In this document: positions 11,153 through 47,794 of the stretch, piece by piece
How the letters are laid out: each line of letters opens with the position of its first letter
How positions within the stretch are numbered: position 1 is the stretch's first letter
Assembly (NCBI GenBank): GCA_902984215.1
Contig: CADWAF010000514.1
Span: forward strand, 1-50,533
Source of the DNA: Willaertia magna
Taxonomy: Eukaryota > Heterolobosea > Eutetramitea > Acrasida > Naegleriidae
Direction: 5' to 3'
DNA: 50,533 bases
Program-made: the position numbers and the translations under genes
Notes under the pieces: model-generated
What the model saw: only the letters and a program-made list of their open reading frames with translations
Database searches by the model: none
Told to the model about the DNA's origin: nothing

Positions 11153-12211
11153 TTAATCTAAGTAAAAGTAGTTTGTTAAAAAATAAGAATAAAATAATAA
11201 TGCATTAATATTCTTAAATTCTATAGCACTAACTTTCAAATAAGGCATTAAATATTCTCTTGAAATTTCCTCCAATTCATCATCAGTAATCTTCATTAGA
11301 TTTTCGTTCTTGTCGTCACACTTTAACACTAATAAAATAAATTCCACTAATAAATTATATTCTTTAATATAATTATCACAATTTAGTTTCCACTTTTTAA
11401 AACTTTGTAAACTTTCTCTATTTGTCAAATCTATACACAAACAAATAATTTGTAATGATTCTTTTGAACCTCTTAAAAAACTTTTACACAAATCATTAGG
11501 TCCAAAATAACTTTCTTGACCACTGGTGTCCCATAATTCCATTTTAATATCTAAATTATTTTTATTTTTAATTGAAATAGTTGGCCAATAACAAAGAATT
11601 GTAATTTCAGATAATTTTGAAATGTCATTGGTTTGATTGGTTAGCGCTTTAATATAAAAAGTTTTCCCAACTTTGTAATCTCCTAAAAATTTTAAACAAA
11701 CTCTAGTATTGTAATAATTATAAGTGTTTGAAATTGCTTTGGACTTATCATTCAAATTATTTGTAAAAAACGAAGAAAAATAGTTAAATATATTATTAAA
11801 GAAATTTGATTTTTCAGTTGATACTTGTGGTAATGGTGGTTCGTTTATTTGTACAACATTTATTTCTAATTTTTTTTTAATTGGTTGATGTTCTTGTAAT
11901 AAATTAAGAGACGGTTGTAATTTTAAGGTATATTCATTATTATTAATTTTATCAAAAAAGTCAATTTTTGTAAAATAGCCATACTTTTTATTACATTCTT
12001 GTTGTAAAGTTGATAAAACTAAATGATTTAAAATAAAATGTTTAATTAAATAATTTAAATTAAAAGTTTTATATTTTTCATTAAAATATGGAATAACTAC
12101 ATTATTTCTAAATTCTTTATTTAATAATCCGAATAATACATAAATTTCTAAATCTGATAAATATTTCATTACATATTCCACTATCTCTGCTGGAAAGTAA
12201 TGTGTTGTCAT
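11153..12211 (-). CDS. F-box-like domain fused to a degenerate Ras-like GTPase domain
   Basis: The protein has 352 residues. Residues 5-45 (FPAEIVEYVMKYLSDLEIY...NKEFRNNVV) resemble an F-box. After a linker of about 120 residues comes a Ras/Rab-like domain at 170-352. Its P-loop GDYKVGKT (177-184) and switch II WDTSGQE (227-233) are good. The guanine-recognition motif is weakened to LKCDDK (296-301) and the SAK loop reads SAI. An insertion lengthens the region between P-loop and switch II. There is no C-terminal cysteine for prenylation. A GTP-switched SCF adaptor is one possibility, but both domains are divergent and function is unknown. The gene is intronless. Confidence 0.75.
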   Translation of the reverse strand: MTTHYFPAEIVEYVMKYLSDLEIYVLFGLLNKEFRNNVVIPYFNEKYKTFNLNYLIKHFILNHLVLSTLQQECNKKYGYFTKIDFFDKINNNEYTLKLQPSLNLLQEHQPIKKKLEINVVQINEPPLPQVSTEKSNFFNNIFNYFSSFFTNNLNDKSKAISNTYNYYNTRVCLKFLGDYKVGKTFYIKALTNQTNDISKLSEITILCYWPTISIKNKNNLDIKMELWDTSGQESYFGPNDLCKSFLRGSKESLQIICLCIDLTNRESLQSFKKWKLNCDNYIKEYNLLVEFILLVLKCDDKNENLMKITDDELEEISREYLMPYLKVSAIEFKNINALLFYSYFLTNYFYLD

Positions 12212-14039
12212 TTTTTTTGTAATAAATTAAAAAGTTCAAAAAAATGACCAATAAAAAAAGATCCAAGAAGTAGAACTAATCTTTTCAAAATAATAACAAC
12301 TTTAGTCCTATGCTTAAATTTATTATAGCAAATAAATAAATTCACAAAAACATCTATAAATTTATACTCTTTTTCAAAATATTTAGTAAAAATTTTTTTT
12401 ATATTTTTTCATTTTTATTTTACTATCATTTATTTGATAGCATAAAATGAAATTTTATTAATTCTTTATAATTTAAATAAAATAAAATTTAAAAATTAAA
12501 TATAAAAAACAAACTAATAAAATAAATTTAATAAATTTTTGAAAGATTATAAATTTATATAATTTTTAATAAATAAATGTAATTTAAATTTTTTAAAAAA
12601 TAGATTCTAAATAAATATTTTAAAGTTATTTCTTTTTAAATTAATATTAAAACTATTTTTTTTATAAGCAAAAATATTAAGTATAATAATTTTTAAGTAT
12701 TTTAAAAATATAATAAAAGTAATAAAATAATATTTTTAATTTTTTAAATTTATTGGTTTTATATAATATATAATTTGTATTTATAAATATTAATATTAAA
12801 ATTATTTTAGTTTTTTAAAGTAAGTAAAAATATTATGTTTTTAAATTAATTTAATAAAATTTTTATTTTTTTTTATTAAAAATAATTTATTATTTAAAAA
12901 ATATATTTTTTTAAAATTTATATATAATAAAACATTACATTTTTTATTTAATAAAAAAATTATTTAGATAAATTTTATTATAATATTAATTTGAAATATT
13001 TTTTAATTAAATTATTTTTTCTTTTTTTTAATAAACTTTTTTTCTTTATCCAACATAAGAATTTTAAATAATTTTTTAAATATTATTATACTTTTATTAA
13101 AATTAAAATAAAAATTTTTATTTAGAAGTTTATTTTTTAAAATTTTATTATTTATATTCAAAAAACAAAAAATCATTTTTTCATTATATTTTTTATAATA
13201 AATAAAAAAAAATTTTGGGTTTTAAATAATAATTTAATAATTTTTTCAAAATATGTTATTATTTATTATATAAATATTATAAAATTTTTTATTTTTAACA
13301 TTAAATCAAACTAATATAAAATATAATCATTATTAATTTTTTTAAAATAGTTTATTAAATTAATATTTATAAAGTCTTTATTCAATAATAAAATAATCTT
13401 ATTTATTATATTATATATTTAAAATTTTGAAATATTAATTTTTAATTTTTTTATAACTTAAATCAATATAACATTAATAAAACTATATCTTCATATAACA
13501 AATTAAATAAAAAATATAAAAAATAACTCCGTAATTACAAAAATAAATATTAATACTAAAAATAAAATATTTAAAATAATTTATAATATAACAAAAATTA
13601 ACAAACTATTAACTGTTAATTATTACAAAAAAACAATAATAATTATACAAATAATTTAAAAACAAACAAAAACAAAGTACAAAAAATATTTAATTATAAA
13701 GAAAAAAAAATATTAATATCAAATCCACTAATAAATACAACAACACAAATAACATAATGTCAAGCAGTCAAAATAATAGTAAAAAAAAGAATTAAAACTT
13801 AAAAATGATCTTTGAAAATTAATTTTGAATCAAATTTTAAAAATCTAATTTATGATTAGATTTTTATTAAAATTAAGAATTACTGTAAGAATTAATAAGT
13901 TTCAAGTAAAAAATAGGTTTATTTTTTGATTATAAAAACAACAGTAAAATCTTCAGCTTGAAGGTTGTATGTAAAGTAGATTATTATATAAAGTAATAGA
14001 ATCATTTATGAAAAAGACATTCCTATTATATAAAATATT
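12212..14039. other. 1.8-kb gene-free island of nearly pure A+T
   Basis: This is the longest stretch without a gene. Sampled lines hold only 2-7 G or C per 60 bases, far below the flanking genes. It consists of A/T runs and short imperfect repeats without a clear period. Small hairpin-forming segments occur, for example arms CTATCA/TGATAG near 12423-12440 and CTTCA/TGAAG near 13961. No ORF, tRNA-like or transposon-like structure was found. The last 300 bp (about 13740-14039) are slightly richer in G and C. Confidence 0.8.
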
Positions 14040-17620: not shown

Positions 17621-20329
17621 ATGTCTGATAGAGGAAGAGGAGGATATCGAGGAGGTGGACACTCTGACCGTGGTGGAGGTAGAGGTGGAAGAGGAGGCTT
17701 TTCCGATAGAGGTGGTTATCAAGGAGGAAGTGGTGGTAGAGGTTCGTCATCTTCCGAGAGAGGTGGATACCAAGGAGGAGGTCAAACAGAACGTGGAGGA
17801 TATCAAGGTGGTGGAAGAGGAAGAGGAGGAACATCTGATAGAGGAGGAAGAGGAGGATATTCCGATAGAGGAGGTGGAAGAGGTGGATTTAGAGGAGGTT
17901 TTCAACAAAGAGGAGGATTCCAACAAGGAACGTCAACATCTAGAGAATATTTAAAAAACGTTAAAATTGAATCAATTAAAGTAGATGAATTGCCACAACC
18001 TAAAGAAGTAGTAACATCAGTTCATGTAGTAAAAACTACAAAGACAGGTACCTCAGGAACAAAAGTATCTTTATTAGCTAATTATTTCCCTTTACAATTA
18101 CCTGAAGGTCCTTTCTATCAATATGATGTTAAAATTAGACCTGAAGTTGAAAATTTTCGTTTAGCATCTTATATTGTTGCGCAATGTTCTAATTTAAAGG
18201 AAACACCTTACGTTTTTGACGGAAATGCAGTTTTATATACTAAAGTACCTTTATTTAAAAAGGAAACTGATAAATTAGAATTTATTACAAAATTAAATAG
18301 TGGAGAAGAATATCAAGTAATTATTTCATGGGCTTGTAATATTACTTCTAAATCAATTACAACAGCTGTTTTACAATTATTTAATATTATGTATAGAAGA
18401 GCATTAAGACATTTAAAATTACAACAAATTGGACGTCATCACTATAATATGAATGATAAAGTAGTTGTAGATGTTCCTCAACATAAAGTTAAGATCTTAC
18501 CTGGTTTTATTTCAACAACTTATGCTAGTTCTAGAGGAGTATTATTTAATGTAGATGTTATTTATAAAACATTAAGAACAGATAGTGTATTATCTACAAT
18601 TATTGAATTAAGAGAAAAATTCGAGAAAATGCAAAGACATGAAAAGAAAATTAAAGAAGAATTAAGTGGAACCATTGTTTTATGTAACTATAATAATAGA
18701 ACAGTACATATTGACGATGTTGATTTTACTAAAACACCTAGAGATACATTTGAGAAGAAAAATAAAGAAAAGATTACTTACGTAAATTATTTTAAGCAAC
18801 AATACAATGCAACTATTACTGATATGAATCAACCTTTATTAGTTCATAGAAATAAGAATGACCCACAAAGAATTGAATATTATGTTCCTGAATTATGTTC
18901 ATTAACTGGATTGACAGATGAAATGAAAAAAGATAGAAATGTAATGAAAGATTTAAAAGAACAAACTGGTTTATCACCTAACGATAGAGCTAGACAAATC
19001 TCTCTATTTGTTAGGGAAGGAAATGAAAATGAAGAATTTAATAAGGTTTTAGCTGATTGGGACTTTAAATTAAGTACAAAACTATTAGAAATACCTGGTA
19101 GAGTTCTTCCATCAGAAGTTATTAAATTTGGTGATAAAAAAGAAACCGAAGTTTCTTCTAAAGCTAGTTGGGATATTCGTGGCGATAAATTATTTAAAAC
19201 TGTTACTGTTAATAATTGGATTGTTTTTTATCCAAAAGCTAGTAGACAAGAGGTTGAGAATTTCTTAGATATTTTCTCACAAGTTTCTAAACCGTTAGGA
19301 GTGGTGTTTGGTCAACCAACAACTATTGAGGTTCATGATACATCAGCTGATGGTTATTGTAAGGCAATTAGAGAGAAGATTAATGCAAATGTTGGGTTAT
19401 GTTTAGTAATTTTACCAACTGATTTAAGAACTACTTATGATAGTGTTAAGAAGGTTTTATGTAATGAATATGGAGTACCTAGTCAATGTGTTGTTAGAAA
19501 AACTATTTCTAATCCAAAAGGTCTTCATTCTAAAGCTACAAAGATTGTTGTACAAATTTGTAGTAAGTTAGGAGGAGCCCCTTGGACATTACAATTTAAA
19601 TTCCCTGGACCAACTATGTGTATTGGTTTGGATGTTTATCACAGTGGAGAGATTTATAAGAGAACAAAGGCATCAATTGTTGGTTTTGTTGCAACTATGA
19701 ATGCTACTTTAACATCTTATTATTCAAGAGTAGTTATTCAAAAACCAGGTCAAGAAATTGTAGAGGCCCTAGCACCATGTTTAAAGGATGCATTAGAAAA
19801 GTTCCATGCTTTGAATGGTTGTTATCCTAAACATATATTATTCTACAGAGATGGTATTGGAGAGGGTCAAGTCTCTCACGTTTTAGAAAAGGAAATCAAG
19901 AATTGTCAAAGAGTTATTAAGGAATTGAATGCTGACACTAAGTTATGTTTTATGGTTGTTTTGAAAAGAATTCACACCCGTTTATTTGCTCAAGATTCAA
20001 CTGATTTATCAAATCCTGTTCCAGGTACTGTAGTTGATACAGATATAACAGGCCCTGAAGCTCTTGAATTCTTCTTGGTTTCCCAACACGTCAATCAAGG
20101 CTCAGCAACACCAACCAGATATCAGTGTATTGTAAACGAATCTGCATTTTCTGCTGATTATTTACAAACATTGACTTACAAATTATGCCACTTATATTTC
20201 AATTGGTTTGGAACTATTAGAGTACCTGCACCATGTCTATATGCGCATAAGATTGCATTCTTAGTTGGCCAAAGCACTCACAGCGAGGATGAAGAAAAAC
20301 GTTTGAACAACAGATTATTTTACTTATAA
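17621..20329 (+). CDS. piwi: Piwi-clade Argonaute with RGG-rich N-terminus
   Basis: This small-RNA-guided protein has 902 residues. Residues 1-105 are a Gly/Arg repeat (RGGYRGGG, DRGGGRGGRGG and similar), a candidate for arginine methylation and Tudor or RNA binding. N and PAZ domains follow (PAZ about 300-410), then MID, then PIWI from about 640. PIWI contains IGLDVYHSG, QEIVEAL, FYRDGIGEGQ and YAHKIAFLVGQ. The catalytic tetrad is complete: Asp671, Glu712, Asp744 and His876, so slicing is expected. YAHK and FYRDG are Piwi-type rather than Ago-type signatures. The gene is intronless, unlike several neighbours. It converges on the LRR gene 129 bp away. Targets such as transposons are not shown here. 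Confidence 0.95.
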   Translation: MSDRGRGGYRGGGHSDRGGGRGGRGGFSDRGGYQGGSGGRGSSSSERGGYQGGGQTERGGYQGGGRGRGGTSDRGGRGGYSDRGGGRGGFRGGFQQRGGFQQGTSTSREYLKNVKIESIKVDELPQPKEVVTSVHVVKTTKTGTSGTKVSLLANYFPLQLPEGPFYQYDVKIRPEVENFRLASYIVAQCSNLKETPYVFDGNAVLYTKVPLFKKETDKLEFITKLNSGEEYQVIISWACNITSKSITTAVLQLFNIMYRRALRHLKLQQIGRHHYNMNDKVVVDVPQHKVKILPGFISTTYASSRGVLFNVDVIYKTLRTDSVLSTIIELREKFEKMQRHEKKIKEELSGTIVLCNYNNRTVHIDDVDFTKTPRDTFEKKNKEKITYVNYFKQQYNATITDMNQPLLVHRNKNDPQRIEYYVPELCSLTGLTDEMKKDRNVMKDLKEQTGLSPNDRARQISLFVREGNENEEFNKVLADWDFKLSTKLLEIPGRVLPSEVIKFGDKKETEVSSKASWDIRGDKLFKTVTVNNWIVFYPKASRQEVENFLDIFSQVSKPLGVVFGQPTTIEVHDTSADGYCKAIREKINANVGLCLVILPTDLRTTYDSVKKVLCNEYGVPSQCVVRKTISNPKGLHSKATKIVVQICSKLGGAPWTLQFKFPGPTMCIGLDVYHSGEIYKRTKASIVGFVATMNATLTSYYSRVVIQKPGQEIVEALAPCLKDALEKFHALNGCYPKHILFYRDGIGEGQVSHVLEKEIKNCQRVIKELNADTKLCFMVVLKRIHTRLFAQDSTDLSNPVPGTVVDTDITGPEALEFFLVSQHVNQGSATPTRYQCIVNESAFSADYLQTLTYKLCHLYFNWFGTIRVPAPCLYAHKIAFLVGQSTHSEDEEKRLNNRLFYL

Positions 20330-46417: not shown

Positions 46418-46518
46418 TATTATATAATATTAATCTTCCTTAATTTTAAGACAGTTTTGAATGCATAAGTATTTTCAATTAAAAGAATTTACAGTACAAA
46501 AAACTACACTTACCAGTG

Positions 46519-47368
46519 ATGTCTTTCAACTTGAGATTTTGTAATCCAACCCTTTTTTCAAAGGTAATTGACCTATTGGTACATTTTACAGATATTGTTC
46601 AGTTTAAGGTATCCAAAGAAGGACTTACTATCCATGCTATGGATACTTCTCAAGTAATGTTATTCGAATTAAAGTTAATTGCTAGAAAGGCTTTAACATT
46701 TGTAGGGAACAAACCAACCAGAGAAATGATATTTGGAGTGAATTTAAAAGTAAGTACATACCTTCAAGCCTTACATAATCACTTAGCTACTCAACCAAGC
46801 AACAAAAGACTTAAAACAAAATGATGAATTGGGAATAACATTCAAAGAGGACCGCATTACTCTGACGATATTGAAATTCTGTCCAAAACGGGAACTAACC
46901 TATAACATTGCTTTGTTTGACATAAATTCAGATGAATACGCAATTGAGCATTATGATAATAATGTTGAGGCAGAATTATTATTTAAAACCTCAACATTAA
47001 GTGACTTGATATCTGAGTTGAAAGGAATCGGTGAGAAAATTAGATTTTCAATTAACAACCAGAACGATATTCCATCCCTTATTGTAGAAGGTAGTAATGA
47101 ATGCATATCAGCTAAAGTAGAAGTGCATCATGACGAAAACCACTTAACAATAAGTATGAGAAATTCAGGGGATGGCCTTGTTGGTAATGTTTTTTCAGCC
47201 AAAATACTTGGTGCCATAGTGAAAACAGGTAAGATATCGGAAAGTGTGCTTGTGCAACTGTCTACGGATGCTCCCTTGAGTGTGATTTATCTATTAGAGG
47301 ATTGTGTGGGTAGTTTTAGATATTACATTGCCCCATTCTTAGAAGATAATGAAAGTGATGATGAATAA
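46519..47368 (+). CDS. PCNA: Divergent PCNA sliding clamp (two exons)
   Basis: Exons are 46519-46749 and 46787-47368, with a 37-bp intron, giving 270 residues, the normal size. The start chosen is the ATG at 46519; the codon before it is GTG. Recognisable parts are FSKVIDLLVHFTDIVQFKVSKEGLTIHAMDTSQV (PCNA: ..GFSLQAMDSSHV), FGVNLK, DELGITFKEDRITLTI, ISELKGIGEKIRFSI (PCNA: LSSIGDTVVISV) and the C-terminal FRYYIAPFLEDNESDDE (PCNA: IRYYLAPKIEEEE). A homotrimeric clamp for DNA polymerase is expected in the nucleus. The sequence is more divergent than typical PCNA, and the interdomain loop is altered. It may be a paralogue rather than the only clamp; a 9-1-1 component is less likely because of the intact C-terminus. 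Confidence 0.85.
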
Positions 47369-47441
47369 ATAGGTTTATCAATATATTTCAGTTTATTTCC
47401 AATAACCAATGATGTTTTACGTAAAGCAGAATGTATTGGTA

Positions 47442-47509
47442 TTAACGGTCGTCATCATCATTTACCATTAGAGCTAATTATCGATCGTCATCGTCATTCA
47501 CCATTAATA
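47442..47509 (-). repeat. Tandem duplication of a terminal exon (36-bp unit)
   Basis: The two 32-bp coding segments (47509-47478 and 47473-47442) begin 36 bp apart and each is preceded by an AG acceptor. Codon by codon they read TTA/CTA, ATG/ATG, GTG/GTA, AAT/AAT, GAC/GAT, GAT/GAT, GAC/GAC, GAT/GAC, CGA/CGT, TAA/TAA. Five differences in ten codons are all silent on this strand. Confidence 0.85.
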
Positions 47510-47794
47510 CTTTATTAACAATAAGTGAAAGAAAATAAATATTTACGTACCCAACATTTGTCGTATTTGAGTTGATGATAAATGTGAAACATTTACTTTC
47601 GGAATTACAGAAGAAGAGTCTTTTGAAGTTGTAAAATTATTACTTTGTATAACACCATTACTATTATTATTTAAAACAAACATATCAGAACTAAAACATC
47701 TCTTTCCGCTATTATTAGTTGTTATCAAAGATTTGTTGTTCTTTTTAACACTACGACAAATACCGCTGATGGCACGAGAAGTTATTCTATTCAT
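47442..47794 (-). CDS. Small mitochondrial-type protein with two alternative terminal exons
   Basis: Exon 1 is 47794-47551 and encodes 81 residues starting MNRITSRAISGICRSVKKNN, a basic, Ser/Arg-rich mitochondrial presequence with RCFSS as a likely cleavage region. Without splicing the frame ends MLGT-stop. A GT donor (GTACGT at 47550-47545) can join two acceptors. The first gives exon 47509-47478 (intron 41 bp) encoding V-LMVNDDDDR-stop. The second gives exon 47473-47442 (intron 77 bp) encoding A-LMVNDDDDR-stop. Both proteins are 91 residues. The two exons are tandem duplicates, 36 bp apart, that differ only at synonymous positions apart from the first residue. Function is unknown: the acidic tail (NDDDDR) may contact a partner. 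The gene converges on PCNA, 73 bp away. Confidence 0.65.

What the first reader, a model, noticed from the sequence alone, without database searches (positions are those of the whole stretch)
47442..47794. Tandemly duplicated terminal exon kept by synonymous change only
A 36-bp unit holding an intron acceptor and a full terminal exon occurs twice, back to back, on the minus strand. Spliced from the same donor (47550), either copy ends the protein with x-LMVNDDDDR-stop, with Val or Ala at the junction. The copies differ at five of ten codons, and all five changes are silent, including a Leu TTA/CTA first-position change. Non-coding repeats would not show this. It implies an old duplication with both exons still translated, so two alternative acceptors give nearly the same protein. 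Such redundancy is unusual in a compact genome; it may protect against acceptor loss or allow regulated 3' ends.
Basis: partly seen in the sequence, partly recalled or inferred. Interest (0 to 1): 0.8.

Follow-up and report, generated by a model that had tools for sequence, protein, structure and literature searches.

The report
Duplicated last exon, silent differences only
A small amoeba gene carries two back-to-back copies of its tiny last exon that spell the same amino acids with different codons, which suggests that both were kept because both were translated; a public gene model uses the second copy, and use of the first is unproven.

Summary
On the minus strand, exon 1 (47794-47551) can be joined from donor 47550 to an acceptor ending at 47510 or 47474. 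Both products are 91 aa and end LMVNDDDDR-stop, with Val or Ala at the junction. The two 30-nt cores match at 25 of 30 positions and all 5 differences are silent. Five simulated neutral changes are all silent with probability about 2e-5 to 3.6e-4. The 6 nt before each core share only AG, the acceptor. The organism is very probably the free-living amoeba Willaertia magna: NCBI protein ABK040_009798 equals the Ala product letter for letter, so that model uses the distal acceptor, and ABK040_009799 is the neighbouring RING gene at 100% identity. I read this as an old tandem duplication of acceptor plus terminal exon, both copies translated for a long time, the distal one now the main form. Present use of the proximal copy is not shown, and no second species could be compared. 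Tandem duplicated C-terminal exons are a known class; the 36-nt spacing without a separate intron and the unchanged peptide are the unusual parts.

The parts
47551..47794 (-). Exon 1 of the small gene (81 codons plus 1 base); N-terminus looks like a mitochondrial targeting sequence (by eye, from recall, not tested)
   Evidence: P0001 residues 1-81 match exactly
47474..47550 (-). 77-nt intron of the public gene model (GTACGT ... TTAG); it contains exon copy 1
   Evidence: only single-intron GT-AG solution in this stretch that gives P0001 exactly
47510..47550 (-). Alternative 41-nt intron (GTACGT ... AAAG), proximal acceptor
   Evidence: no transcript evidence
47478..47509 (-). Terminal exon copy 1 (proximal): V-LMVNDDDDR-stop
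47472..47477 (-). 6 nt between the cores (TTAGCT), holding acceptor 2; compared with the 6 nt before copy 1 only AG is shared (2 of 6)
47442..47473 (-). Terminal exon copy 2 (distal): A-LMVNDDDDR-stop; the copy in the public protein
47392..47397 (-). AATAAA downstream of both stops, possible poly(A) signal
   Evidence: motif match only

Best explanation
A segment of about 36 nt (AG acceptor plus a short terminal exon) was tandemly duplicated in a small gene of Willaertia magna. One donor (47550) can be joined to either acceptor, and each choice ends the protein in the same nine residues. For a long time both choices gave working protein, so selection removed amino-acid changes and acceptor loss in both copies while silent sites and the linker drifted. 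Today the distal acceptor (77-nt intron) is the main one, and the proximal copy is probably used in a minority of transcripts as a near-neutral alternative 3' splice site. Shown: anatomy, silent-only divergence, public protein equal to the distal product. Inferred: age, proximal use, order of events.
For: 5 silent changes on 5.5 synonymous sites and 0 on 24.5 non-synonymous sites; P(all silent) 2e-5 to 3.6e-4. AG lies at the same place before both cores although the rest of those 6 nt differs. Both products keep the frame and are 91 aa. P0001 is identical to the Ala product and fixes donor 47550 and acceptor 47474. Rough intron set from coding signal only, 20 introns of 39-153 nt with acceptors AAG 9, CAG 4, TAG 4, GAG 3; in the 9 with a single fitting acceptor AAG 3, TAG 3, CAG 2, GAG 1 and 39-118 nt: 41 nt with AAG and 77 nt with TAG both look ordinary. 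The neighbouring RING gene matches a public W. magna protein at 100% with a 47-nt TAG intron.
Against: The only public model uses one acceptor and no Val isoform is listed. The 36-nt spacing is a multiple of 3, which the alternative-acceptor model does not need and a former in-frame protein repeat does. Only ten codons are compared, four of them Asp. Silent-only stretches occur at about 1% of near-repeats here (3 of 308). My own ab initio gene finder did not settle it: its first pass left the intron in (gene ending at 47543), its second chose 47550-47474 but inside an implausible merged gene. No second species was available.
Confidence: 0.6

Rival explanations
1. Former in-frame protein repeat: exon 2 once encoded both copies in one protein, which diverged silently while both were translated; a later stop at the end of copy 1 and use of a chance AG between the copies gave today's arrangement.
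For: The copies are in one frame, 36 nt apart, and the stretch between holds no other stop: reading on from acceptor 47510 gives VLMVNDDDDR*LALMVNDDDDR*. It explains silent-only change in both copies without alternative splicing.
Against: The AG before copy 2 sits at exactly the place of the AG before copy 1 and is the acceptor of the public model, which this rival leaves to chance. No protein holding both copies was found.
Confidence: 0.17
2. Dead proximal copy: only the distal exon is used; copy 1 is an intronic relic that was inactivated recently, or whose silent-only pattern is luck.
For: The public gene model treats copy 1 as intron. In 214 kb, 2 other near-repeat stretches also show silent-only differences in some frame.
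Against: Silent sites look saturated with no amino-acid change; P at most 3.6e-4 for five neutral changes. The AG, frame and stop of copy 1 are all intact.
Confidence: 0.17
3. Nucleotide-level constraint or artefact: the repeat is a low-complexity GAT/GAC run, an antisense or RNA-structure element of the convergent PCNA-like gene, or an assembly error.
For: The core is rich in Asp codons; the plus-strand PCNA-like reading frame ends at 47368 and a plus-strand AATAAA lies at 47534, so the two transcripts may overlap here.
Against: The stretch folds no better than shuffles (z 0.00; 95 of 200 shuffles fold at least as well). The differences follow minus-strand codon positions. Copies that differ at 10 of 36 positions are not a simple assembly duplication.
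Confidence: 0.06

Closest known systems
Tandem duplicated exon substitution events (mutually exclusive exons), including C-terminal ones
   Same: Homologous adjacent exons, one used per transcript. In human GENCODE v40, 77 of 236 such events swap C-terminal regions (PMC9741552, passages read), so terminal duplicates are a known class.
   Different: There the isoforms differ in a homologous region said to fine-tune function (PMC9741552, passages). Here the copies encode the same nine residues, lie 36 nt apart with no separate intron between them, and expression of both is not shown.
Alternative 3' splice sites (tandem acceptors of the NAGNAG type; recalled, not from a call)
   Same: One donor, two nearby acceptors, products differing by one residue (Val or Ala).
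   Different: The acceptors are 36 nt apart and each brings its own stop codon, so the product length stays the same instead of changing by 12 residues.

Membership tests
Tandem exon duplication | Adjacent exons with significant sequence similarity | tested here: met
   25 of 30 core positions identical, 36 nt apart; the two repeat finders did not list the pair at their thresholds
Tandem exon duplication | Each copy preceded by its own AG acceptor in the right phase | tested here: met
   AG ends at 47510 and 47474, both give 91-aa products; sequence only
Tandem exon duplication | Both copies under protein-level constraint | tested here: met
   5 of 5 differences silent, P at most 3.6e-4; ten codons only
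Mutually exclusive / alternative splicing event | Transcripts that use each copy | tested here: inconclusive
   Public protein equals the distal product only; no reads are held here, so nothing for or against the proximal copy beyond that model
Mutually exclusive / alternative splicing event | Conservation of both copies in related species | not testable with these tools
   No homologue outside W. magna found; no DNA of related amoebae was available (no relatives held)

The most novel reading that the evidence does not exclude
A protist keeps two redundant copies of a terminal exon, acceptor included, for robustness: whichever AG the spliceosome picks, the same functional C-terminus and a stop result. 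Selection has then preserved a spliced backup rather than a diversified isoform.
Probability: 0.3. Interest if true: 0.6.

Novelty: new variant of a known kind. Interest (0 to 1): 0.42.

Why it matters
Tandem duplicated exons are usually explained by new protein variants. A pair kept silent-only would be a clean case of selection for splicing redundancy, in a heterolobosean amoeba. It can be settled with RNA-seq of one species.

Tried and rejected
Pfam scan of the 91-aa and 83-aa products: 0 families at E up to 1. PDB sequence search of the Val form: 0 matches at E up to 5. Protein homologues: only P0001, in both searches. The third search went to the neighbouring RING gene: 2 hits of 296 candidates, P0002 (W. 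magna, 100%) and P0003 (44%, source ENA, no name, 5,590-base contig). DNA of relatives of P0003 and P0001 in viral contigs: none confirmed. Genome search with the Ala protein found only this locus, exon 1. Ab initio intron inference: the first run gave many doubtful long introns and merged genes and I dropped it; it left the intron in at this locus in pass 1 and chose 47550-47474 in pass 2. The strict run (GTA-type donors, introns of about 30-160 nt, intron G+C below 30%) kept 20 introns, 9 with a single fitting acceptor. RNA folding: nothing unusual. The intron-retention product (..QMLGT-stop, 83 aa) is not the public model. Literature: searches showed 15 of 57, 15 of 35, 15 of 56, 12 of 22 and 12 of 14 papers, as titles and abstract starts; none shown was about this gene or, from its title and abstract start, about duplicated terminal exons that differ only silently. 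Passages were read of PMC11702301, PMC6892926 and PMC9741552, and the abstract and section list of PMC9013439.

Full report
What is there. On the minus strand a short gene starts at 47794. Its first exon runs to 47551 and is followed by a GTACGT donor at 47550. Two AG dinucleotides downstream, ending at 47510 and 47474, each restore the frame, and either choice gives a 91-aa protein ending LMVNDDDDR-stop, with Val (proximal) or Ala (distal) at the junction. The two ten-codon ends are 36 nt apart and match at 25 of 30 positions; over the whole 36-nt units 26 of 36 match.

Is it more than chance? All five differences are silent. By Nei-Gojobori counting there are 5.5 synonymous and 24.5 non-synonymous sites, so silent sites look saturated and no amino acid has changed. 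Five simulated neutral changes are all silent with a probability of 2e-5 to 3.6e-4, over two starting copies and three transition biases. The 6 nt before each core share 2 of 6 letters, exactly the AG acceptor, and the 6 nt after share 1 of 6. As a check against cherry-picking I surveyed 214,116 bases of the same genome: beside 308 clusters of near-repeats there were 3 stretches (this one and two in L014) with silent-only differences in some frame of either strand. The pattern is therefore rare but not unique; here the frame was set in advance by exon 1. Neither repeat finder listed the pair at its threshold. In the held 19.24-Mb assembly, which is only part of the genome, just these two places match the motif without mismatch, out of 30 with up to 3 mismatches against 22 for the reversed control.

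Whose gene is it? A search of 5.8 billion proteins returned one hit, ABK040_009798 of Willaertia magna, 91 aa. Its sequence is letter for letter the Ala product, and among the single-intron GT-AG solutions tested in this DNA only donor 47550 with acceptor 47474 gives it. The upstream neighbour, a RING-finger protein, is 100% identical over the 265 residues searched to ABK040_009799, and the whole 312-aa protein is recovered from the window with one 47-nt intron. The window is thus very probably W. magna; an rRNA check did not run. The genome of strain T5(S)44 was annotated with BRAKER2 using RNA-seq and proteins (PMC11702301, passages). That ABK040 is this assembly is my inference from the species and the gene count (18,644); the tag does not occur in the text. 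I could not see the DNA behind ABK040_009798, so that it also holds copy 1 is inferred from the identity of the proteins.

What this says about use. The public model uses the distal acceptor, so copy 1 lies inside its 77-nt intron. No separate Val isoform was in the answer (1 member sequence). The proximal acceptor is not abnormal: in a rough set of 20 other introns AAG was the commonest acceptor (9; CAG 4, TAG 4, GAG 3), and in the 9 with a single fitting acceptor AAG and TAG were equal (3 and 3) with lengths of 39-118 nt. These introns rest on coding signal, not on transcripts. A looser gene finder gave no clear answer at the locus: intron left in on its first pass, 47550-47474 on its second inside an implausible merged gene. 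The RNA around the acceptors folds no better than shuffles.

Most likely account. A segment with acceptor and terminal exon was duplicated in tandem; both copies were translated long enough for silent sites to saturate while the peptide, the AG and the stop of each stayed fixed. The distal copy is now the main one and the proximal is probably a minor alternative. The chief rival is an in-frame protein repeat later cut by a stop: it fits the 36-nt spacing (a multiple of three) but leaves the matching acceptor AG to chance. A recently dead proximal copy is the other rival. RNA-seq junction counts would decide; none were available here.

Comparison. Tandem duplicated C-terminal exons are known (77 of 236 human events; PMC9741552, passages), and tandem exon duplications are reported as abundant in coding and untranslated parts (PMC9013439, abstract). 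What differs here is the absence of a separate intron between copies, the very short exon, and the lack of any change in the nine encoded residues. The protein's role is unknown: no Pfam family, no PDB relative by sequence. By eye its N-terminus (many Arg, Lys, Ser, then RCFSS) resembles a mitochondrial targeting sequence; this is recall, not a test.

Noticed in passing
46483-47368 (+): Divergent PCNA-like gene, convergent with the small gene (PCNA_N, PCNA_C and Rad1 Pfam matches on two reading frames); plus-strand AATAAA motifs at 47364 and 47534 suggest that its 3' end may overlap the duplicated exons in antisense.
   Followed up: partly
47511-47516 (-): An AATAAA hexamer runs into the proximal acceptor AAAG; polyadenylation directed by it could truncate the transcript within or before the terminal exons.
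   Followed up: no
12001-14000: Very A+T-rich stretch (10.6% G+C against 20.0-35.4% in the other 2-kb rows) with many imperfect tandem repeats.
   Followed up: no
17621-20329 (+): 902-aa reading frame with an RGG-rich N-terminus (tandem repeats at 17675-17926); by eye an Argonaute/Piwi-like protein, no family scan made.
   Followed up: no
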